Shown here: one piece after another, positions 31,307-42,147 of the stretch
Position numbering within the stretch: the first letter of the stretch is position 1
How the letters are laid out: each line of letters starts with the position of its first letter
NCBI RefSeq assembly: GCF_004339725.1
Contig: NZ_SMGK01000002.1
Coordinates: 124,001-188,000 of the forward strand
DNA: 64,000 nt
Reading direction: 5' to 3'
Origin: Acidipila rosea
GTDB lineage: Bacteria; Acidobacteriota; Terriglobia; Terriglobales; Acidobacteriaceae
The notes under the pieces: generated by a model
Databases searched by the model: none
Told to the model about the DNA's origin: nothing
Seen by the model: the letters and a program-made list of their open reading frames with translations, nothing else
Made by a program: the position numbers and the translations under genes

Positions 31307-31322
31307 TGTGATTCAAATCACA
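31307..31322. promoter_or_regulatory. CRP-type palindrome TGTGA-N6-TCACA upstream of the CBS gene
   Basis: TGTGATTCAAATCACA matches the CRP half-sites perfectly. Its centre lies 70 bp upstream of the CBS-domain start codon, in a 264-bp divergent gap, so it could also affect the ADOP permease gene. The same motif recurs at 37028, 39197 and 41677. Confidence 0.7.
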
Positions 31323-31384
31323 GTGCGGAGGTGCGACAACGCTGTAGCGTCAATGACGGAAGCTCGGAAATGAAAGGAGACTCC

Positions 31385-31858
31385 ATGAACGTTAAAGATG
31401 TAATGACTACTCTCCCCTACTGCTGCAAACCAACCGATACGGTCCAGGAAGCTGCGCTACTCATGAAGGCGCACGATGTTGGAGCGATTCCGGTGGTGAA
31501 TGACTGTGACGAAAAGAAGCTGCTCGGCATTATCACGGATCGCGACATATGCCTCAGGATTGCTGCTGAGGGGGAAGCGAGCGGTAAAGTGAAGGTGTCG
31601 GAAGTGATGACCCGATCGGTAGAAACATGCCAGGCCGAGGACCTGATTGAGTCCTGCGAAGCGAAGATGGCCATGCGTCAGGTAAGGCGCATGCCCGTAG
31701 TCGACAAGCAGGGGATATGCGTAGGCATTGTCTCGCAGGCAGACGTTGCATTGCGAGACACGGCAGAACATACTTCTTATATGATCGCTGCTATCTCACG
31801 GCACCCAGCGGCGAGCAGGAAGCCATCTTCGCACGTCGCTCCCGCTGGAGCAGCCTGA
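31385..31858 (+). CDS. CBS-domain pair protein
   Basis: 157 residues from ATG 31385, five bases after AAAGGAGA. Two CBS motifs make up most of the protein: residues about 5-60 (VKDVMTTLPYCCKPTDTVQE, IITDRDICLR) and about 72-125 (VSEVMTRSVETCQAEDLIE, GIVSQADVAL). A stand-alone CBS pair usually binds adenine nucleotides and reports energy or redox state. The content resembles the Hrp1-like CBS proteins of the mycobacterial hypoxic response. It lies behind a perfect CRP-type palindrome and is the first gene of the stress block. The last 25 residues are unstructured. Target unknown. Confidence 0.88.
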   Translation: MNVKDVMTTLPYCCKPTDTVQEAALLMKAHDVGAIPVVNDCDEKKLLGIITDRDICLRIAAEGEASGKVKVSEVMTRSVETCQAEDLIESCEAKMAMRQVRRMPVVDKQGICVGIVSQADVALRDTAEHTSYMIAAISRHPAASRKPSSHVAPAGAA

Positions 31859-31915
31859 TAACGGCGTAGCGAGTGCAAGTCGCAGATGTGATCTCATACC
31901 GGGAGACAGAAAGCG

Positions 31916-33292
31916 ATGCCTACATCCTCCTATTGTGAACCTTCGAAGGTGTTGGATCTTTTATTTGAGGGCTACGAGGGGCCCTCATTTGAAATCAGAC
32001 TCTGGGATGGCTGGCACTGGTGTTCACATTCGCACGAAAGGCCGCGCTGCAACCTCGTCATCAATAACTACAAAACATTCAAGGCACTGATCGTACGGCC
32101 CAGCGAAATCACCCTGGGAGAGGCATTTCTCCAGGGCGATATCGACGTGACGGGGGATATCTTTTCGGTCTTCGTGATGGCCGATTACCTCTTTCGGCGG
32201 CCCGAGGGGCAACGACAGAAGCTGCTCGAGACGGCGTCCCGCGCCTTACTCAACATGGCTCAGTCGTGGAACAGCGGGATTCGGCACTCAGCCAAGAGAG
32301 ACCGCGCCGCGATTGCTCATCACTACGATCAACCTGCCACTTTTTACCGGCCATGGCTCGGTGAATCGCTCGTCTATTCCTGCGCTTACTTTCAGTGCCC
32401 TGAAGATGATCTGGACGCAGCGCAGGAGCATAAACTCGATCTTATCTGTAGAAAACTGCGCCTTCATCCTGACGATCATTTCCTTGATATCGGCTGCGGA
32501 TGGGGGAGCCTTATCCTTCATGCGGCTTCCCGGCATAACGTTTATGCGCAGGGCATCACCATCAGCCGCGAACAGGCAGCTGTTGCGAAGGCACGTATCG
32601 ACAGTGAACATCTCACGCAAAGCTGCAAAGTGGATCTGCTGGACTATCGAGATGTTCCGGCCCGCTTTGCTCCGTTCAACAAGCTTGCCAGCGTGGGGAT
32701 GTTTGAACATGTGGGTCTACAGAATCTGCCGCGGTATTTTCAGACGGCGTACCGCATCCTCACACCCGGAGGGGTTTTTCTCAACCACGGGATTGCGCGC
32801 ACAACGTTGAGGCAGAGCAACGACGGGTCGTTCTTCAATAAATATATTGAGCCGACGCTCGACCGTCTTCCCTGGATCAGGCATGCTCATGATTCAGCCT
32901 TCATGGATAAATACGTCTTCCCGGATGGTGAACTGGCTACGATCTCTGAAGCAGTACGCATAGCCGAGCAGGCAGGTTTTGAAGTTCGCGATGTTGAGAA
33001 TCTGCGCGAACACTATGAGCTGACGCTGCGTGCCTGGGTGGATCACCTGCAGCAAAACGCCACGCAGATCCTCCAGCTCGTACCGAATGTTACCTATCGC
33101 ATATGGCTCCTTTATATGGCAGGATGTGCAGCCGCGTTTCATCGAGGTGATATTGCCGTCTATCAAACCTTGCTCAGCCGCCCTCATCGCGGAGACAGTG
33201 GCCTGCCTCTCACCCGAAGAGACTGGTACACAGCTGAGCTTCACGCCGGCAATGCGAGATTGGCGTCTGGTGAAAGCAGGGAAGCCGTGTAA
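31916..33292 (+). CDS. cfa: Cyclopropane-fatty-acyl-phospholipid synthase family protein
   Basis: 458-residue SAM-dependent methyltransferase. The N-terminal lipid-binding part (about 1-110; PSEITLGEAFLQGDIDVTGD) is followed by the catalytic domain with HHYDQPATFYRPWLGESLVY, SAM motif LDIGCGWGSLILHAA (about 188-202) and FEHVGLQNLPRYF; the C-terminus keeps WVDHLQ and YMAGCAAAFHRGDIAVYQTL. The enzyme methylenates cis double bonds of membrane lipids, a stationary-phase, acid and desiccation response in many bacteria. It starts at ATG 31916, 57 bp after the CBS gene, with only a TGTGA half-site between, so co-transcription with the CBS gene is likely. Confidence 0.9.
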   Translation: MPTSSYCEPSKVLDLLFEGYEGPSFEIRLWDGWHWCSHSHERPRCNLVINNYKTFKALIVRPSEITLGEAFLQGDIDVTGDIFSVFVMADYLFRRPEGQRQKLLETASRALLNMAQSWNSGIRHSAKRDRAAIAHHYDQPATFYRPWLGESLVYSCAYFQCPEDDLDAAQEHKLDLICRKLRLHPDDHFLDIGCGWGSLILHAASRHNVYAQGITISREQAAVAKARIDSEHLTQSCKVDLLDYRDVPARFAPFNKLASVGMFEHVGLQNLPRYFQTAYRILTPGGVFLNHGIARTTLRQSNDGSFFNKYIEPTLDRLPWIRHAHDSAFMDKYVFPDGELATISEAVRIAEQAGFEVRDVENLREHYELTLRAWVDHLQQNATQILQLVPNVTYRIWLLYMAGCAAAFHRGDIAVYQTLLSRPHRGDSGLPLTRRDWYTAELHAGNARLASGESREAV

Positions 33293-33379
33293 AGAAGAAT
33301 TTCATCTTCGCGGAAAGGGGAGCATCGTATCATTGCCACACGAAGAGGCAGTGGTAATGTCATCCCCTGAGTCCGCACT

Positions 33380-34489
33380 ATGAGCAACATCCGCCCACCA
33401 CAGGTTGAAGGCCCGCTGCAGGGTGCGGTGCTTGTGCTGCTCCAATTCGACGTGTGCGAATCGATTCGCCTGGATCAGCTGCGCGAGCTGATTCGCGAAC
33501 ACCAGGTGGCCTCGCTTAAATCTCATCATCCTGCACCTGGCTACATACGCTACCAGCGGCCGCCGGTCGTGGAGCCTCTGGAGACGCTTGTGCTCGAAAG
33601 CGGCGAGCGCCTGGCAGGCGAGATCAAATACTACGACTATGGTGTGCTCAGCGTGGTCTTTCAACTGCCGTTTGCCGGCGAGTGGCAGGATCTGCTGCAG
33701 CTGGCCAGCCGCTGGGTGTGGGACATTGATTTTGCTGCGCAGGCAACGGAGCTTGTCCGTAGAAGACTTGAGCGGGTGGGTTCAGCGCTGGTGAAGCCCT
33801 ACAGCAGCTGGCTGAGCGAGGACTACCTGATTTTCCAGATTCAACACGCTCCGCATGCAGACTCGATTTCCGAGTTGATCCAGCACCATGGACCATCCAT
33901 TGCAAAAGTAGTTCGCGGCGACATGGGGAGACTGGCTGAGAGCGAGATCAATGAAGTGCTGCGGTCGCGCATCTCCTACTATGAAACTGACCTGGCGGTT
34001 ATTGGATGGAACGCCGCGTTTATCTATGACAATGCATCGGATGCGGAAACTGCCATCCAGTTGCTGGAGTATGCGAACTCGCAATTGCTCGAGTTCCGAC
34101 ACTATGACAATCTGCTCACACGGGAGCTGGAGAATGTCTACAAGTTGCTCGACAAGGACACCGGCGTTCTCGCGCGATGGAGGATGGCTAGATCGGCGAC
34201 CCGGCTGCATACAGTACTCCTCGATGTTCAGGAGCTGACGGAGCACGCGGATAATGCCATCAAGTTTCTCAGTGACATGTTCTCCGCCCGCTTTTACAAG
34301 CTTGCCGCTTCCAAGGTGGGCGTCCCGGACTACAAGGATCTTGTGACGAAGAAGGTTCAGACGGCTGAAGAGCTCTATCGGTTCATGGTGGACCAGTTTA
34401 ACCAGAGCCGTGCCTTCTTCCTTGAAGTAACAGTCGTTATCATCCTCGCCATCGAGCTGGTCTACCTCTTTCGTGGAAAGCTTCTTTAG
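33380..34489 (+). CDS. RMD1/YagE family (DUF155) protein
   Basis: 369 residues. The conserved DUF155 core covers about 55-340, with the typical ending in which a helical region (ELENVYKLLDKDTGVLARWR, NAIKFLSDMFSARFYKLA) precedes a single C-terminal membrane helix (about 343-362, EVTVVIILAIELVYLF) and a short basic tail, giving a tail-anchored topology. Relatives include yeast Rmd1/Sif2 and bacterial YagE-like proteins, which are poorly characterised; mitochondrial members affect inner-membrane organisation and translation. It sits 87 bp after the cyclopropane synthase in the stress block. Function unknown here. Confidence 0.82.
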   Translation: MSNIRPPQVEGPLQGAVLVLLQFDVCESIRLDQLRELIREHQVASLKSHHPAPGYIRYQRPPVVEPLETLVLESGERLAGEIKYYDYGVLSVVFQLPFAGEWQDLLQLASRWVWDIDFAAQATELVRRRLERVGSALVKPYSSWLSEDYLIFQIQHAPHADSISELIQHHGPSIAKVVRGDMGRLAESEINEVLRSRISYYETDLAVIGWNAAFIYDNASDAETAIQLLEYANSQLLEFRHYDNLLTRELENVYKLLDKDTGVLARWRMARSATRLHTVLLDVQELTEHADNAIKFLSDMFSARFYKLAASKVGVPDYKDLVTKKVQTAEELYRFMVDQFNQSRAFFLEVTVVIILAIELVYLFRGKLL

Positions 34490-34548
34490 GGAAGCGTGTA
34501 AACTTCGCTTGTTGAAGAAGCAGTTCGAATTTGAGGAGACAAGAGAGA

Positions 34549-35334
34549 ATGATTCGCCCGGTGATGATTTGCGCCGCACTGCTTGTAGCACAGACAGCGG
34601 CTTCCTACGCAGGCCAGCTACCAGCCAACACATCGCCTGCATCTGCTGCGCCCCCGACTGCCAGCCAGGTAGAAAAGATGCAGGCGCAGCTGCTGGACTG
34701 GCCAGACCTGAACCGCTATCGCGCCGATGACGCAGCTCTGCCGCCGCCGGCAGCCGGAGAAGAACGGGTGGTGTTCTTCGGCGACTCCATCACGGATGGG
34801 TGGGGACGGCGACCAGAAACAGGCTCCTTTTTCCCGGGCAAGCCCTATGTGAATCGTGGCATCAGCGGGCAGACCACACCGCAGATGCTGGTGCGGTTTG
34901 AGCAGGATGTCGTGCATCTCCACCCGGCAGCTGTGGTGATTCTGGCGGGGACGAATGACATTGCCGGAAACACGGGTCCATCAACACCCCAGATGATCGA
35001 GGACAACTTTACCGCGATGGCTGCCATTGCGAAGCAAAGCGGCATCAAGCTGGTGCTCGCATCCATTACACCTGCGTACGCCTATCCATGGAAGCCGGGG
35101 GTGAGTCCGGTCGCGGAAATCCGATCGATGAATCAATGGCTCCGCGACTTCTGCTCCAGCAACGGATGCGTTTATCTGGACTACTACACGGCGATGTCAG
35201 ATGAGAAGGGCGCGATGCGTCCGGGCCTGTCCTTTGATGGGGTGCATCCGACAGCCAAGGGATACGCAATCATGGCGCCGCTGGCCGAACAGGCCATTGC
35301 GAAGGCGCTGGGTCATGGCGTGAGCGGTAATTAG
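34549..35334 (+). CDS. Secreted SGNH/GDSL-type hydrolase
   Basis: 261 residues from ATG 34549, behind GAGGAG; the frame begins 18 bp earlier but the signal peptide (MIRPVMICAALLVAQTAASY) starts here. All SGNH blocks are present: FFGDSITDGWG (S80), the glycine of NRGISGQTT, GTNDIAGN, and D230-x2-H233 in DGVHPTAKGY. It is probably a periplasmic carbohydrate esterase or lipase; the close spacing of blocks resembles platelet-activating-factor acetylhydrolase-like and xylan esterase-like groups. A glycan-deacetylating role is inference. Convergent with the HdeD-like gene. Confidence 0.88.
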   Translation: MIRPVMICAALLVAQTAASYAGQLPANTSPASAAPPTASQVEKMQAQLLDWPDLNRYRADDAALPPPAAGEERVVFFGDSITDGWGRRPETGSFFPGKPYVNRGISGQTTPQMLVRFEQDVVHLHPAAVVILAGTNDIAGNTGPSTPQMIEDNFTAMAAIAKQSGIKLVLASITPAYAYPWKPGVSPVAEIRSMNQWLRDFCSSNGCVYLDYYTAMSDEKGAMRPGLSFDGVHPTAKGYAIMAPLAEQAIAKALGHGVSGN

Positions 35335-35353
35335 AACGCCCCATCTTCCCGAA

Positions 35354-35414
35354 CCAGCCACGCCTTGAGTGTTTCTTCGTACAACGGTCTGGAAGGAGAC
35401 TCAGGCGTGGCTGG
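35354..35414. repeat. Long inverted repeat between SGNH hydrolase and HdeD-like gene
   Basis: CCAGCCACGCC (35354-35364) pairs with GGCGTGGCTGG (35404-35414), and TGAGT with ACTCA just inside, with one bulged base and a 28-nt loop. The right arm lies at the 3' end of the minus-strand gene, covering its stop codon. Probably a terminator-like mRNA 3' structure; no T-run is visible. Confidence 0.5.
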
Positions 35415-36006
35415 GGCGGATGGTCCCCGTGCGGTGCCCTACCGCATTCATGCGCGCCGTTTGCCAGCCCAGCAGGAGAAGCTTGATGCCTTCAAAGGCA
35501 GTGTAAAGGCCGAGCGCGATGATAGCGCCTCGATGGCTAAACTTCATCGCCCAGAGCAGCAACCCCGAAAAGATCAGCGAGATCGCGCCGAAGCTGTAAG
35601 CGATCACGCGCGCGCCACTGGTGGGCAGATGACGGCGAATAAAAAAGATGGCCCAGCAGCCGGCAACGACCGCGTGCGCGGCTGCTGAGATGAGGAGAAT
35701 CCGCATGGTCCATTCGGCATAGAAGAAAAGCAGCCCGGCGGCGGACGCCAGCAAAACGCCTGCGACCATGTAAAAGACCCCGCGTATCGGGTCCTTGGGC
35801 TCGCATTGATAGGCGAGCGCCCAGTCCGTGAGCGCGATGAGAGCAAGCGCAGAGGCGGAGAGCAGAACGGCCATCATGATAGCGATAGCCTCAAAGAGCG
35901 GATTTGTCATTACCGCACCGAGATAGAAAAAGGTCAACCCTAACCCGAGAGCGATAGCACCCTGAATCACCAGGGTCCGAGCCTGGACTGTCGCCTCTAT
36001 CCTCAT
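35401..36006 (-). CDS. HdeD-like DUF308 membrane protein
   Basis: 201 residues from ATG 36006, which overlaps the stop of the upstream stress-protein gene by 4 bp (ATGA), so translation is probably coupled. Six predicted membrane helices, arranged as three similar hairpins of the DUF308/HdeD type (VIQGAIALGLGLTFFYLGAV; GVFYMVAGVLLASAAGLLFF; FGAISLIFSGLLLWAM). HdeD in E. coli contributes to acid resistance at high cell density; the mechanism is unknown. Coupling to a universal stress protein supports a stress role. The C-terminus is basic and His/Thr-rich. Confidence 0.82.
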   Translation of the reverse strand: MRIEATVQARTLVIQGAIALGLGLTFFYLGAVMTNPLFEAIAIMMAVLLSASALALIALTDWALAYQCEPKDPIRGVFYMVAGVLLASAAGLLFFYAEWTMRILLISAAAHAVVAGCWAIFFIRRHLPTSGARVIAYSFGAISLIFSGLLLWAMKFSHRGAIIALGLYTAFEGIKLLLLGWQTARMNAVGHRTGTIRPSHA

Positions 36007-36944
36007 GCGTACGTGACCTCTTTGATCAGCGTGCCACCGCTTTGTCTGCGCGCTGCGGGGACGAGCAGAACGGGACAATGTGAGTTGAAGATTACTTGAA
36101 AGACAGTGCTCCCCTCAAGACTATCGCCTTCCATCTCCTTGGCAGGCGCACCCAGCACCAGAAGATCAGGATGGAGCTTCGCCGCGTGCGCAGCAATGAC
36201 GGCCGCGGCTTCACCGGAGGCGACAACGTGGTCAACAGGCAGCGTGTGGGACTCATTGAGCGGGGCAAGCAGACGCAAGCGCTCCAGGCAATGAGCACAA
36301 TTCTCCTCGTTGCCGCACTGGGCGCTGTGGAGTACGGTTAACTGTTCCAGGGCGACGTGATGTGCGCAATGCAGCGCGGCCAGCCCTTGCGCTGAGAAGT
36401 CTGTGGCGATCAGGACATTGTTCCAGCGATCGGCTTTGGCCTTGCCCAACCCTGCGAGCGGAGCGAGCGTGAGAACTGGGCACGGCGCATGCACCAGCAG
36501 ACGCCGCGCGACCGCCCCGAGTGCTGCTCTGCCGGCGGCGGTGCGTCCGTGGGTCGCAAGAATAAGCATGGAGGCGCCGGAGCGGTTTGCCTCGTCCAGA
36601 ATGTCCTGGCATACGCGGTCGCGCTCCACGATGGAATGATGGGTATCCCTGTGCTCGGCGGCATCGCTCTCGGCCTTTGCCAACTCTTTAATAGCCTCCT
36701 CATCATGGAGAACGCCGGAGGGCGCGCCGTGCGGGAAGGCATAGAGCATGGGATCAATGGAGTGCACGAGGAGCAGCTTCGCCTGCTGCAGCCGTGCAAG
36801 CTGCTGCGCATAACGCAGGGCGGAGGAGTCCTCCACTGAGAGATCCGCGACGAGCATGATGGTGGAAAAGGGCTTCCGGTTCTTCGCGCGTCCTGCGCCC
36901 CGGTCAATTTCAACAGGTGCGGAAGTAGTTTTCTTTGCGGTCAT
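36003..36944 (-). CDS. Tandem universal stress protein (UspA family)
   Basis: 313 residues with two Usp domains (about 25-160 and 180-300). Domain 1 opens STIMLVADLSVEDSSALRYA and keeps an ATP-type loop ILATHGRTAAGRAALGAVARRLL; domain 2 opens NNVLIATDFSAQGLAAL and ends with LLVLGAPAKEMEGDSLEGSTVFQVI, where the usual G-x2-G loop is altered. The first 20 residues are basic and disordered. Ribosome site GGAGAGCC precedes ATG 36944. A CRP-type palindrome lies 91 bp upstream of the start. It forms an operon with the HdeD-like gene. Role inferred from family: stress survival, possibly by nucleotide sensing. Confidence 0.88.
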   Translation of the reverse strand: MTAKKTTSAPVEIDRGAGRAKNRKPFSTIMLVADLSVEDSSALRYAQQLARLQQAKLLLVHSIDPMLYAFPHGAPSGVLHDEEAIKELAKAESDAAEHRDTHHSIVERDRVCQDILDEANRSGASMLILATHGRTAAGRAALGAVARRLLVHAPCPVLTLAPLAGLGKAKADRWNNVLIATDFSAQGLAALHCAHHVALEQLTVLHSAQCGNEENCAHCLERLRLLAPLNESHTLPVDHVVASGEAAAVIAAHAAKLHPDLLVLGAPAKEMEGDSLEGSTVFQVIFNSHCPVLLVPAARRQSGGTLIKEVTYA

Positions 36945-37027
36945 TGCGGCTCTCCATAGAACTGGCTTTTGACCATGATCTTAAGCGCCGAAGGAGGCCG
37001 AGCACCGTGATGGCGACCACAATCTCA

Positions 37028-37043
37028 TGTGATCTGCATCACT
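37028..37043. promoter_or_regulatory. CRP-type site upstream of the tandem USP / HdeD operon
   Basis: TGTGATCTGCATCACT: one half-site perfect, the other 4 of 5. Its centre lies 91 bp from the USP start codon and just past the 3' end of the Crp/Fnr gene, whose product is the obvious candidate binder. Confidence 0.6.
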
Positions 37044-37070
37044 GACAAGGCGAGGTACGATAGGAGCAAT

Positions 37071-37781
37071 TTAGCGGACGTGAGCCTCAAGCTGGCTGGG
37101 CTTGAGAATTACCAGTGTGGCGCCTCGGCGTTCGATCAAACCCTCGCGCTCAAACTGGTTGAGCAGACGGGTAACGGTTTCGCGCGAAGTTCCGGCCATA
37201 CTCGCGAGTTCGTCATGTGTCAGAGCCATGGTGAACCTAAGCTCAGGCTTGCCGCATGCCGCGGTGCGTGCCCAGTCCAGCAGCAACTGCGCCAGGCGAC
37301 CGGTAGACGATCCGGATAACGCGAGACGACGCGCATTCTGGAAAGCGTCGCTATATTCGCGTGCCAGTGACTGCGCTGCGTGCTGGCTGACCTCACCAAA
37401 CCCTTCGAGAAACTTTACAAACTCATTCCGGCGAACGGCTTTGATCGTGCAGGGCTCTAGCGTCTCCGCCGTCACCTCGTAGGGGCCGTCACTGAGCGTC
37501 GCACCGAGGCCAAGCACATCCCCCGGGCCGGCTATCTTGAGGATCATGGTGCGGCCCTCGCGGGACGAGGCGCTGAGCTTGAGATGACCTGCACAAACCA
37601 CGAAAACCCCGTTCGATCGATGACCCTCCTCGAACAAGACCGACCGGCCCGGATACATTACATGAGCGCCAATGTCATCAAATGACGCAAGCGCAAGAGG
37701 TCCGAGATTGCAGAAGGTCCGCGTCTTGCGGTGACCGCATTCCGAACATTTTTCAGCGGGTTGAGAGGAAGCGGGAAACAT
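37071..37781 (-). CDS. Crp/Fnr-family transcription regulator with FNR-like cysteines
   Basis: 236 residues: cysteine-rich N-terminus (about 1-25), cyclic-nucleotide-binding-type beta roll (about 40-125), dimer helix and winged helix-turn-helix (about 155-230). C12-x2-C15-x8-C24 plus C111 resembles the four cysteines that hold the 4Fe-4S cluster in FNR, though spacing differs. The recognition helix TSRETVTRLLNQF has R200, E201 and R205, as in E. coli CRP (R180, E181, R185), which reads TGTGA; FNR has V-E-x3-R and reads TTGAT. The cAMP-contact residues of CRP are not preserved. It lies among four TGTGA-N6-TCACA sites, so it is the likely regulator of cydAB, the stress proteins and the CBS gene. 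Oxygen or redox sensing is inference. Confidence 0.9.
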   Translation of the reverse strand: MFPASSQPAEKCSECGHRKTRTFCNLGPLALASFDDIGAHVMYPGRSVLFEEGHRSNGVFVVCAGHLKLSASSREGRTMILKIAGPGDVLGLGATLSDGPYEVTAETLEPCTIKAVRRNEFVKFLEGFGEVSQHAAQSLAREYSDAFQNARRLALSGSSTGRLAQLLLDWARTAACGKPELRFTMALTHDELASMAGTSRETVTRLLNQFEREGLIERRGATLVILKPSQLEAHVR

Positions 37782-37851
37782 GGTCTACATGAGTATGTTC
37801 CCGTCCGCCAAAGATTTCAAACCCGCGACTCGCATTTGATGCTATCTTCCA

Positions 37852-38139
37852 TTAACTGGCTACCAGGTCGAGCAGCGTCGACCGGACAGGGGCAGCCTCC
37901 TGCCAGCGCCTCAACGGCCGTGGCAGCTCCACAGGCGCAACGGATTTAAGACGCAACTGCTCGCCAGCCGGACGCCATGTCTGCACTACGTAAAGCTCAG
38001 TGCACGCGGCACAAAGCCAGATAGGACGCTGCCGCTCTGAGCCGCCGCCAGCCTGCTGCTTCGCCTCGTTGATCCAGTGCAGGCTACCGCTCCTGAAGTA
38101 GATAGCCTGAGCAGCACAGTGTGGATTCGCACAAATCAC
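37852..38139 (-). CDS. Small zinc-ribbon-like hypothetical protein
   Basis: 95 residues from GTG 38139, with a strong GGAGGTGA ribosome site just before it. Two cysteine pairs, C-x4-C near the start (ICANPHC) and C-x2-C at about 43-46 (WLCAACTELY), suggest a zinc-binding knuckle; the C-terminal half is basic and Pro/Leu-rich. No family recognised. It sits between the Crp/Fnr gene and a universal stress protein on the same strand, 32 bp after the latter, so it is probably co-transcribed with that stress protein and may belong to the same response. Confidence 0.6.
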   Translation of the reverse strand: MICANPHCAAQAIYFRSGSLHWINEAKQQAGGGSERQRPIWLCAACTELYVVQTWRPAGEQLRLKSVAPVELPRPLRRWQEAAPVRSTLLDLVAS

Positions 38140-38171
38140 AACTCACCTCCGTGAGCATTCTGGCCTGCCCT

Positions 38172-39125
38172 TTATCCGAGGACGCAGGCGTGCTGTTCTG
38201 GTTGGCTTGTCATCATGCTGTAACCTGCGGGCACGCGGAATGAGAGCACAGGACAGGTGGCGGCGGCCATGATCGCATAGGCTGTTTTGCCGCCGCTGTG
38301 ACCCGGCCAGAAAGACTGGGCAGGATGAACGCCCATTACGATCAGGTCTGCGGAGGTGTCCTTTGCACAGCGCAATATCTCTTCCTCCAGATTGCCTGCT
38401 GCAATCCTGGTGCGCACCGGCGACCAAAGGTCTCCACGCATAGCGGGCAGGAGCGACTCCAGCCGCTCGAAGCTGTAGTCGGGATCGAGATAGGGTTCAA
38501 CCGCTGTTTCCTCGCGCAGGACATAGAGCATGGTCAGCTCGGCGCGGCTGTCCTGCGCCAGATCGAGCGCAAGATGAGCTGTTGCATCACAGTCCGGACC
38601 CAAGCCGGTCGGATGCAGGATGCGATGGAGGCCGGCGTTCGAAACTCCCGCACAGCGCGGACCAATGGTGCAGACGGGCACATCCAGATGCTGGAGCAAC
38701 TGGAGCGTGACGGAACCCAGAGCCAGGCGCTTGATTCCACGTCGGCCATGGGTGCGGGCCAGCACCCGTCCGGCATCAGTCTCATGGACGACCTCGGCGA
38801 TGACATCTGCAGCGAAGCCGTGGCGCACGGCCGTGGAGCAGGACACGCCCTGCTGCTCAACCTGATGGCTGATCTCCAGCATACGCAGGCGTGCATCGCG
38901 CGAAGCCTTGAGAGGATCGGGGCCGGGGATCATGCCCGATTCCGGATCATAAGTCATCTCCGGGGCAATGGCATGGACAATCTTCAACACTGCATGCGCT
39001 GTTTTGGCCTGGGCAATCGCGTGGGGCAGCAGTTCGGCCATGTCCGTAAGATCAGTGGCTACAACGATGGTGTCCGGGGCCGCAAAGAGGCTGGTGTTGA
39101 AGTCTGCTTGATTGGTCATGCTCAT
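38172..39125 (-). CDS. Tandem universal stress protein (UspA family)
   Basis: 317 residues, two Usp domains (about 18-150 and 165-300). Domain 1 opens DTIVVATDLTDMAELLPHAI and keeps a RTHGRRGIKRLALGSVTLQLL loop; domain 2 contains LIVMGVHPAQSFWPGHSGGKTAYAIM, an altered nucleotide loop. Start at ATG 39125 behind AAGGAGAG. A perfect 22-bp palindrome of CRP type lies 80 bp upstream, between this gene and cydB, so it can be transcribed independently of cydAB. Likely a stress-survival protein of the same regulon. Confidence 0.87.
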   Translation of the reverse strand: MSMTNQADFNTSLFAAPDTIVVATDLTDMAELLPHAIAQAKTAHAVLKIVHAIAPEMTYDPESGMIPGPDPLKASRDARLRMLEISHQVEQQGVSCSTAVRHGFAADVIAEVVHETDAGRVLARTHGRRGIKRLALGSVTLQLLQHLDVPVCTIGPRCAGVSNAGLHRILHPTGLGPDCDATAHLALDLAQDSRAELTMLYVLREETAVEPYLDPDYSFERLESLLPAMRGDLWSPVRTRIAAGNLEEEILRCAKDTSADLIVMGVHPAQSFWPGHSGGKTAYAIMAAATCPVLSFRVPAGYSMMTSQPEQHACVLG

Positions 39126-39193
39126 CGATCTCTCTCCTTACGGTCTACTGTCTCTCCGAAAGGAGCGGGCCTGCAGTGTTGTGCGATACATAG

Positions 39194-39215
39194 CTGTGTG
39201 ATGGCCATCACACAG
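39194..39215. promoter_or_regulatory. Perfect 22-bp CRP-type palindrome upstream of the USP gene
   Basis: CTGTGTGATGG followed by its exact reverse complement CCATCACACAG, giving TGTGA-N6-TCACA at 39197-39212. This is the most symmetrical of the four sites. It lies between the cydB stop and the USP start codon (centre 80 bp from the ATG); a TATGTA element follows it on the minus strand. Confidence 0.75.
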
Positions 39216-39225
39216 CCGGGCGCAA

Positions 39226-40269
39226 TCAGTGTCCGTAACCAGCCCCCTCCGTAACTTTTCCGCGGAACAACCAGTAAGACGTGACGAAATAGAGCGTTGC
39301 CAGGAGCATGCCAAAGATCCACCACGCCAGACCGACGTGAACGGAATGGCTGCCGGCGAGCGCCTCTGCAACCGTAATGCTCTGTGCAGGCGAGATGGAG
39401 GAGGGAAGCAGCGTCGGGTAGAGCCCCGCAGCGGCACCCACGAGCATGACCGCCAAGTAGAGACAGGAGGACAGAAAGGCGTGGAGCTCTTTTCCTCGGG
39501 CACGAAAGAAGGCCGCAGAGCCGAGCGACAGAGCCACCATCACGGGAATGACGAAGAGCGCCGGGTAGGAGCGGTAGTTTGCCAGTGAGGAAGGGCGCGC
39601 CGCAACCGTTGCCGGCAGGCTGATGATCGTGACCAGCGCGACTGCGGGCCACAGGCGGCGAGCGGCCAGCGTGGCACGCGAGCCCAGCGATCCGGTTGTC
39701 TTGAGCGCGATCCAGAGAGCGCCGTGATGGGCAAGCGCCACCAGGGCGACCACCCCGCCCAGGACCGTGTACCAGTCGAGAATGCCGGGTGACGGGCCGA
39801 CCCGCCAGTTGGTCCAGAGTGGCAGAAAGAAATAGCGGTCAGCGCCAAGCGGCACGCCGCGAATAACATTCGCCAGAGCGGCGCCGTAGAAGATGGCAAG
39901 CAGGGCACTGGCGACAAAGAAAATGCCGTCGAAGAAGGTGCGCCAGACGGCGTTCTCCATGTGGCTGCGCAACTCGATGCCGAGACCGCGCAGAATGAGC
40001 AGCCAGAGCACGATCATCAGCGGCAGATAGAAGCCACTGAAGGCCGAGGCGTAAAGCAGCGGAAAGGCAAAGAACAAGGTGCCGCCGCCAGCCAGCAGCC
40101 ACACTTCGTTTCCGTCCCAGACCGGCCCGATGGAATGGATTGCCGTTCTGCGCTCCTCATCAGTCCGCGCGAGAAAGGGATAGAGAATTCCTACTCCGAG
40201 GTCGAAGCCGTCCAACACAACATACGCAGCCAGCATGACCGCAACGATCCAGAACCAGATTGCACCCAT
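39226..40269 (-). CDS. cydB: Cytochrome bd ubiquinol oxidase subunit II (cydB)
   Basis: 347-residue, about nine-helix membrane subunit of the bd-type oxidase, which oxidises quinol and reduces oxygen with high affinity without pumping protons. Family segments: YVVLDGFDLGVGILYPFLARTDEERR, IGPVWDGNEVWLLAGGGTLFFAFPLLYA and the C-terminal WWIFGMLLATLYFVTSYWLFRGKV. It follows cydA by 25 bp in the usual order. No small cydX gene is visible after it. Regulated with cydA, probably through the palindrome upstream of cydA. Confidence 0.93.
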   Translation of the reverse strand: MGAIWFWIVAVMLAAYVVLDGFDLGVGILYPFLARTDEERRTAIHSIGPVWDGNEVWLLAGGGTLFFAFPLLYASAFSGFYLPLMIVLWLLILRGLGIELRSHMENAVWRTFFDGIFFVASALLAIFYGAALANVIRGVPLGADRYFFLPLWTNWRVGPSPGILDWYTVLGGVVALVALAHHGALWIALKTTGSLGSRATLAARRLWPAVALVTIISLPATVAARPSSLANYRSYPALFVIPVMVALSLGSAAFFRARGKELHAFLSSCLYLAVMLVGAAAGLYPTLLPSSISPAQSITVAEALAGSHSVHVGLAWWIFGMLLATLYFVTSYWLFRGKVTEGAGYGH

Positions 40270-40294
40270 TCTTTGTCTCTCCTGACGGCTTCGT

Positions 40295-41650
<1,356 letters not shown>

Positions 41651-41676
41651 CTTACTCGACTTCAGCAGCCAAGCTG

Positions 41677-41692
41677 TGTGACCTTCATCACA
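41677..41692. promoter_or_regulatory. CRP-type palindrome at the cydA promoter
   Basis: TGTGACCTTCATCACA: both half-sites are perfect. Its centre is 34 bp upstream of the cydA ATG, and a TAAGAT element (41658-41663, minus strand) follows. If TAAGAT is the -10 element the site covers the -35 region, so repression or a close-range activation mode are both possible. Confidence 0.7.
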
Positions 41693-41703
41693 ACCCGCCC
41701 GAC

Positions 41704-42147
41704 TTAAGTCTGCTTGGGCGCCCTGATCACCATGACAGGACAGTGAGCATTCTGGAGGACGCCCTGGGCGACACTGCCGAGAAGAAGGTTGCCGACCGTG
41801 CCGCGACCATGAGTACCGATCACGATCAGATCCGCCGGCCAGTTCCGGGCGGCTACGACAATGCTGGCGGCGGGTTTGCCGGTCTCCAGAAATTCAAGGG
41901 CCGGAGGCGTCGCCGCAGCCCGTTCGCAAAATGCCCGAAGAAGATTTCTGGCGTCCGTCTGAGCCATGGCTAGCCAGCGATCGGGCGAAACGCCGGAGTC
42001 CGTGGCAGTCTGGGCAACGGCAGGATCGACGACGGTGACAAACGCAACCTCGGCTCCGAGTTGGCGTGCCAGTTCCAGGCCAGTGTTCGCAGCGTGTGCC
42101 GCGAAGGTGCTTTCATCCACGGCAATGAGGATTCGCTTAAAGCTCAT
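41704..42147 (-). CDS. Single-domain universal stress protein
   Basis: 147 residues, one Usp domain. It keeps the full ATP-binding pattern: ILIAVDES at the start and G-x2-G-x9-GS in GTHGRGTVGNLLLGSVAQGV, with a terminal HCPVMVI strand. Unlike the two tandem relatives in this block it should bind ATP. It lies 53 bp upstream of cydA on the same strand, and the palindrome lies between them, so cydA probably has its own promoter. No palindrome is seen before this gene. Confidence 0.88.
   Translation of the reverse strand: MSFKRILIAVDESTFAAHAANTGLELARQLGAEVAFVTVVDPAVAQTATDSGVSPDRWLAMAQTDARNLLRAFCERAAATPPALEFLETGKPAASIVVAARNWPADLIVIGTHGRGTVGNLLLGSVAQGVLQNAHCPVMVIRAPKQT

What the first reader, a model, noticed from the sequence alone, without database searches (positions are those of the whole stretch)
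31307..42147. Candidate Crp/Fnr-controlled stress and low-oxygen regulon with four matching palindromes
Seen: TGTGA-N6-TCACA sites at 31307, 37028, 39197 and 41677, each upstream of a stress or respiration gene (CBS pair, tandem USP + HdeD, tandem USP, cydAB); three have both half-sites perfect. One Crp/Fnr gene lies in the middle. Known: bd oxidase, USP and stand-alone CBS proteins are typical low-oxygen dormancy genes (for example the mycobacterial DosR set), there under a two-component system. Inferred: the local regulator controls all four, giving a dormancy-type regulon built on a Crp/Fnr protein, with membrane cyclopropanation, DUF155 and SGNH hydrolase as further members.
Basis: partly seen in the sequence, partly recalled or inferred. 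Interest (0 to 1): 0.78.

Follow-up and report, generated by a model that had tools for sequence, protein, structure and literature searches.

The report
Acidobacterial low-oxygen Crp/Fnr stress regulon
A soil acidobacterium carries a set of stress and low-oxygen respiration genes whose switches all bear the same DNA signature, almost certainly read by Fnr-like sensor proteins that are conserved across its family but have not, as far as I could find, been described.

Summary
Three perfect TGTGA-N6-TCACA palindromes and one with a single mismatch lie 43-92 bp before cydA, two tandem USP genes and a CBS gene. Only 7 perfect copies exist in the 4.21 Mb genome. The motif (TGTGATN4ATCACA, up to 1 mismatch) is conserved: 862 hits against 70 reversed-control hits in 72 family genomes, and 87 against 0 around 80 orthologs of the local regulator. 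The regulator, CRP1, has a CRP-type recognition helix, four invariant cysteines (C12, C15, C24, C63), no cAMP arginine, and a predicted fold closest to holo-FNR. A genomic paralog (CRP2) shares its recognition residues and cysteines, so control by CRP1 alone is not shown. New here: single sites stand 21-22 nt before a -10 element (class II geometry), and USP promoters carry a second, weaker palindrome exactly 22 bp closer to the gene (237 hits, against 26 at 23 bp spacing and 3 in the control). In Acidobacterium capsulatum usp and cydAB genes are induced at 0.1 uM O2 (PMC11636273, regulator not named). Best reading: a family-wide Fnr-type low-oxygen regulon, a new variant of a known kind. Binding, the Fe-S cluster and the O2 response remain untested.

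The parts
31307..31322 (+). Perfect Crp/Fnr-type palindrome before the CBS gene, centre 70 bp from the ATG
   Evidence: a site matching 10 of 12 positions in the nearest CBS ortholog (L261)
31345..31350 (+). -10-like TAGCGT, 22 nt after the site (class II geometry)
   Evidence: sequence; family-wide rule
31385..31858 (+). CBS-domain pair protein
   Evidence: Pfam CBS 3e-27
31916..33292 (+). Cyclopropane-fatty-acid synthase family; possible CBS operon member, membership not shown
   Evidence: Pfam CMAS 2e-87; found in only 1 of 80 ortholog loci
33380..34489 (+).
   Evidence: no Pfam or NCBIfam match
34531..35334 (+). SGNH/GDSL hydrolase; possible CBS operon member, membership not shown
   Evidence: Pfam Lipase_GDSL_2 4e-32
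35401..36000 (-).
   Evidence: no Pfam match; homologs in L070, L083, L182
36003..36944 (-). Tandem universal stress protein
   Evidence: Pfam Usp, two stretches
36978..36983 (-). -10-like TAAGAT, 44 nt after the distal site and 22 nt after the proximal site
   Evidence: sequence; rule
37006..37021 (-). Proximal, weaker palindrome TGTGGTCGCCATCACG, 22 bp from the distal site
37028..37043 (-). Distal palindrome AGTGATGCAGATCACA before USP plus membrane protein
37071..37781 (-). CRP1: 4-Cys Fnr-like regulator with CRP-type recognition helix
37852..38139 (-). Small protein of no known family, recurrent beside CRP1 in relatives
   Evidence: no Pfam or NCBIfam match; homologs in 6 of 80 ortholog loci
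38172..39125 (-). Tandem universal stress protein
   Evidence: Pfam Usp, two stretches
39175..39190 (-). Very weak proximal half-palindrome (7 of 12) at the 22 bp position
39197..39212 (-). Perfect palindrome before the USP gene, centre 80 bp from its start
39226..40269 (-). cydB, cytochrome bd oxidase subunit II
   Evidence: Pfam 1e-81
40295..41641 (-). cydA, cytochrome bd oxidase subunit I (start placed at the second in-frame ATG)
   Evidence: Pfam 1e-144
41649..41654 (-). -10-like TAAGAT, 22 nt after the site; implies an almost leaderless transcript
   Evidence: sequence; same spacing in relatives
41677..41692 (-). Perfect TGTGA-N6-TCACA before cydA, centre 43 bp from the ATG
   Evidence: conserved in 16 of 30 cydA upstream regions
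41704..42147 (-). Single-domain USP, just beyond the cydA site; no palindrome found upstream of it
   Evidence: Pfam Usp 3e-32

Best explanation
The window holds the core of a low-oxygen regulon run by Fnr-type members of the Crp/Fnr family: CRP1 (37071-37781), probably together with its paralog CRP2 elsewhere in the genome. Inferred: at low O2 the dimer holds an Fe-S cluster on C12, C15, C24 and C63 and binds TGTGATN4ATCACA. Shown by sequence geometry: single sites stand where a class II activator would (about -41.5, with a -10 hexamer 21-22 nt downstream). USP promoters carry a strong distal site plus a weaker proximal site 22 bp (two helical turns) closer to the gene, the proximal one at the class II position. 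Inferred: two dimers bind side by side and activate transcription. The output is cytochrome bd oxidase, USPs, a CBS protein, FeoAB, a bc1-type complex, nitroreductase and similar genes, that is, survival and respiration at trace O2.
For: Rarity and clustering of perfect sites. Motif excess: 96 v 22 in the genome, 862 v 70 in 72 family genomes, 87 v 0 around 80 CRP1 orthologs, 55 of them directly before USP genes, 16 of 30 v 0 of 30 before cydA. Targets include FeoAB, bc1-type complex, nitroreductase, Hsp20. Recognition helix R-E-x-x-x-R fits TGTGA (pattern from own knowledge). Four Cys kept or lost together in 44 homologs, invariant in 35. Closest solved structures are holo-FNR of A. fischeri. 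Fixed -10 spacing and 22 bp tandem spacing: 237 v 26 at 23 bp v 3 in the control. Published induction of usp and cydAB at 0.1 uM O2 in A. capsulatum (PMC11636273).
Against: No binding, metal or expression data for these proteins. The canonical fourth FNR ligand position is not Cys, so the Cys set could hold zinc or form disulfides. The 47%-identical homolog in G034 (4 Cys, same helix) goes with only one motif hit, so helix plus Cys does not always mean a regulon. The CBS site is weakly conserved beyond the nearest orthologs. 14 of 30 cydA upstream regions lack a good site.
Confidence: 0.76

Rival explanations
1. CRP2 (C3:399281-399949), not the local CRP1, is the main regulator of the four window sites, and CRP1 has a minor or distinct role.
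For: CRP2 has the same R-E-T-V-T-R helix and four Cys. Its ortholog sits in the cydAB-USP cluster of the A. capsulatum-sized genome, where it is the only homolog found.
Against: CRP1 lies inside the cluster here, and its orthologs sit with USP genes and sites in 67 of 80 loci. G065, with CRP1 as its only detected homolog, has the motif and a tandem USP site.
Confidence: 0.2
2. The regulon is real, but the four cysteines sense something other than O2 through an Fe-S cluster: nitric oxide, thiol redox state, or zinc.
For: The fourth Cys is at C63, not at the FNR C122 position; other Crp/Fnr proteins sense redox through free thiols (FixK2 Cys183, PMC12937710).
Against: N-terminal C-x2-C-x8-C, co-conservation of all four Cys, best fold match to holo-FNR, and targets typical of low O2 (cydAB, FeoAB).
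Confidence: 0.2
3. A global cAMP-dependent CRP encoded elsewhere binds the sites, and the cluster is under carbon control.
For: The motif is the same as the E. coli CRP consensus (own knowledge).
Against: Of the four full-length Crp/Fnr proteins found over cut-off in the genome, the two besides CRP1 and CRP2 lack the R-E-x-x-x-R helix. CRP1 lacks the cAMP-binding arginine. Caveat: the genome is 93% complete.
Confidence: 0.04
4. The proteins act mainly as repressors at these sites.
For: In tandem USP promoters the proximal site covers the -35 region.
Against: A -10 hexamer stands at the fixed class II distance, and the same gene classes rise at low O2 in a relative (PMC11636273), when FNR-type proteins bind.
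Confidence: 0.07

Closest known systems
FNR of E. coli and Aliivibrio fischeri (N-terminal [4Fe-4S] type)
   Same: Best structural match of the model (Z 27.2); N-terminal Cys triad; low-oxygen targets such as cydAB and FeoAB (latter from own knowledge).
   Different: Cys spacing C-x2-C-x8-C, fourth conserved Cys at C63 rather than the C122 position; CRP-type helix and TGTGA sites rather than TTGAT.
Bacillus Fnr (C-terminal [4Fe-4S] type)
   Same: An Fnr that, from own knowledge, reads a TGTGA-type palindrome.
   Different: Cluster ligands lie in a C-terminal Cys extension plus an aspartate (PMC3520743); here the Cys are N-terminal plus C63.
Burkholderia cenocepacia lxa locus and Anr-controlled USPs of Pseudomonas
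   Same: Low-oxygen-activated gene set rich in USPs, with a Crp-family protein proposed as regulator; Anr controls hypoxic USP genes (PMC6127331).
   Different: Different phylum and gene order; no 22 bp tandem rule reported there that I found.
Mycobacterial DosR and Myxococcus NmpRSTU regulons
   Same: USP and respiration genes induced at low oxygen (PMC11841059 for NmpRSTU; DosR from own knowledge).
   Different: Those use two-component systems; here a one-component Crp/Fnr protein is predicted.

Membership tests
Crp/Fnr superfamily | cNMP-binding-type sensor domain followed by a Crp-type HTH | tested here: met
   PF00027 1e-16 and PF13545 5e-21 over cut-off; Crp/Fnr structures fill the fold search
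cAMP-dependent CRP | cAMP-binding arginine in the phosphate-binding cassette | tested here: not met
   Aligned to mycobacterial CRP, the P-R-T-S stretch reads P-Y-E-V in CRP1; E102 and V103 invariant in orthologs
cAMP-dependent CRP | R-E-x-x-x-R recognition helix and TGTGA-N6-TCACA sites | tested here: met
   Helix S-R-E-T-V-T-R invariant; motif
Canonical FNR | N-terminal cysteine triad of the cluster loop | tested here: met
   C12, C15, C24 invariant, with longer second spacing (x8)
Canonical FNR | Fourth cluster ligand at the C122 position | tested here: not met
   NCBIfam Fnr alignment offset of 8-9 puts C122 at I113/K114 in CRP1; the conserved Cys is C63; C111 is Cys in only 21 of 44
Canonical FNR | O2-labile [4Fe-4S] cluster controlling DNA binding | not testable with these tools
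   needs purified protein
Canonical FNR | TTGAT-N4-ATCAA sites with E-x-x-S-R helix | tested here: not met
   Helix is R-E-T-V-T-R and sites are TGTGATN4ATCACA
DosR-type dormancy regulon | control by a DosR/DosS-like two-component system | not tested
   no kinase search was made; the sites fit a Crp/Fnr protein
Class II activator promoters | site centred near -41.5 with a -10 at fixed distance | tested here: met
   TANNNT at offset 21-22 in 0.45 of single sites, mean 0.014; cydA set. Start sites were not mapped.

The most novel reading that the evidence does not exclude
A third structural class of Fe-S Fnr: N-terminal C-x2-C-x8-C with the fourth ligand at C63 instead of the C122 position, coupled to CRP-type DNA specificity. 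It activates USP promoters through two adjacent dimers on sites exactly two helical turns apart, and serves across the Acidobacteriaceae as the main low-oxygen switch.
Probability: 0.42. Interest if true: 0.68.

Novelty: new variant of a known kind. Interest (0 to 1): 0.6.

Why it matters
A cultured member of the Acidobacteriaceae, a common soil group, raises usp and cydAB expression at nanomolar oxygen (PMC11636273), but no regulator was named there, and my searches of the open library found no paper on an acidobacterial Crp/Fnr regulon. This work gives a regulator, a binding motif, promoter rules and a target list, so the question becomes directly testable. It also offers a natural Fnr-like sensor with CRP-type DNA specificity and an unusual cysteine set.

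Tried and rejected
A loose 2-mismatch scan of the window alone does not exceed chance; exact and family-wide counts were needed. Exact site C3:466172 (TGTGAAAGTGCTCACA) and several 1-mismatch sites lie inside coding sequence and look like chance. TANNNT over all oriented sites gave only a weak peak until single and tandem promoters were separated. Pfam and NCBIfam did not confirm DUF155 or HdeD, and BLAST found no clear link between the 'HdeD' protein and a DUF308 protein of the genome. CBS orthologs beyond the nearest mostly lack a site. Literature searches for tandem 22 bp Crp/Fnr sites and for acidobacterial Fnr regulons found nothing matching.

Full report
Observation. In the whole 4.21 Mb genome only seven perfect copies exist, against two for the reversed motif, and three of the seven lie within 10.4 kb of the window. 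Each is directly upstream of the named gene: CBS, USP plus membrane protein, USP, cydAB. A loose scan of the window alone is at chance, so the case rests on exactness, genome-wide rarity and conservation.

Motif in the genome. TGTGATN4ATCACA with up to 2 mismatches occurs 96 times against 22 for the reversed control. The neighbourhoods of the best sites (domains) show a coherent set: FeoAB, a Rieske/cytochrome b/cytochrome c complex, an OsmC protein, an alcohol dehydrogenase, and a cluster with M50-CBS protease, Hsp20, USPs and nitroreductase. A second cluster has P-type ATPase, DUF308 and USP genes around a second Crp/Fnr gene, CRP2 (C3:399281).

Conservation. In 72 genomes of the family (one per genus), sites with up to 1 mismatch number 862 against 70 control hits, and their number rises with the number of Crp/Fnr homologs (rho 0.58; the control count also rises, rho 0.35, partly genome size). 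Around 80 orthologs of the window's regulator from named Acidobacteriaceae and related MAG records, 1.23 Mb hold 87 sites against 0 control hits; 55 stand directly upstream of USP genes, and 67 of 80 loci contain a USP gene. For cydA, 16 of 30 relatives have a site matching at least 10 of 12 positions, none by the reversed motif. Silvibacterium bohemicum (L096) has CRP1, cydA, USP and nitroreductase with sites in one stretch. A complete relative (G017) has a similar cluster plus a hydrogenase-like cluster with three sites.

Regulator. CRP1 has the usual two domains. The recognition helix S-R-E-T-V-T-R carries the R-E-x-x-x-R pattern of CRP, which fits TGTGA half-sites (pattern from own knowledge). 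C12, C15, C24 and C63 are each Cys in 40 of 44 homologs, and the other four are divergent or non-orthologous proteins; all four are invariant in 35 orthologs. The cAMP-binding arginine of CRP is replaced. The AlphaFold model (mean pLDDT 83) matches holo-FNR of A. fischeri best (Z 27.2, rmsd 1.9 over 225 residues; GlxR and mycobacterial CRP follow at about 25). The fourth FNR ligand position is not Cys; the conserved Cys is C63, about FNR position 72 (offset). So it resembles FNR in architecture and probably works like FNR, but it is not a canonical FNR.

Which regulator. Of the four full-length Crp/Fnr proteins found over cut-off in this genome, only CRP1 and CRP2 have the CRP-type helix and the four Cys. 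CRP2 groups with the regulator of the cydAB-USP cluster in the genome whose single contig is 4,127,356 bp. I recall that length as A. capsulatum ATCC 51196; the collection gives no names. A genome with CRP1 as its only detected homolog (G065) also has the motif and a tandem USP site. Both therefore probably read the same motif, and the window's sites may be shared.

Promoter rule. Among 142 oriented sites, a second palindrome matching at least 8 of 12 positions stands exactly 22 bp downstream in 50, and at most 2 at any other distance. Across 72 whole genomes the tandem pattern occurs 237 times at 22 bp spacing, 26 times at 23 bp, and 3 times for the reversed control. Single sites are followed by TANNNT at offsets 21-22 (0.45 of sites; mean of all positions 0.014). 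Tandem sites are followed by NANNNT at 43-44 (0.71 at offset 43 after dereplication; mean 0.05). Both put the promoter-proximal site at about -41.5, the class II position. In the window: CBS TAGCGT and cydA TAAGAT at offset 22; USP 37028/37006 with TAAGAT at offset 44. For cydA this implies a transcript starting almost at the ATG, and the same holds in several relatives. The sites come from related organisms and are not independent, but the spacing controls share that relatedness. Start sites have not been mapped.

Oxygen. In A. capsulatum two usp genes rose 7- and 56-fold and cydAB rose at 0.1 uM O2; the text names no Fnr or CRP (PMC11636273). This is the only expression evidence, and it is from a relative. 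Known parallels are the Burkholderia lxa locus and Anr-controlled USPs (PMC6127331) and NmpRSTU of Myxococcus (PMC11841059).

Verdict. Shown: the sites, their conservation, the promoter geometry, the regulator's type. Inferred: binding by CRP1 and/or CRP2, an Fe-S cluster, activation at low O2. Unsupported: control by the local protein alone, and the extra members CFA, 'DUF155' and SGNH beyond a possible CBS operon.

Noticed in passing
L043:2240-2785 (+), L044:794-1369 (-), L047:2223-2783 (+), L050:2289-2783 (+), L051:2358-2855 (+), L053:745-1242 (-): In several genera a 164-191 aa protein with the same sensor domain and mostly the same four cysteines, but no DNA-binding domain (Pfam cNMP_binding only), is encoded just downstream of a full-length 4-Cys Crp/Fnr paralog. 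It might be a heterodimer partner or antagonist.
   Followed up: partly
L230, L231, L232, L239, L258 (cydA upstream regions): With the -10 at 22 nt after the site, cydA transcripts would start 0-4 nt before the ATG, so cydA may be leaderless in this clade.
   Followed up: partly
L193:2910, 11242, 12650 (G017): A hydrogenase-like gene cluster in a relative carries three sites of the same motif, which would tie H2 uptake to this regulon.
   Followed up: no
37852-38139: A 95 aa protein of no known family lies between CRP1 and the USP gene; homologs recur beside CRP1 orthologs (6 of 80 loci).
   Followed up: no
L058 (C3:383001-403000 of the window's genome): A second cluster around CRP2 with P-type ATPase, USP, DUF308 and transporter genes carries seven or more weaker sites of the same motif.
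   Followed up: partly
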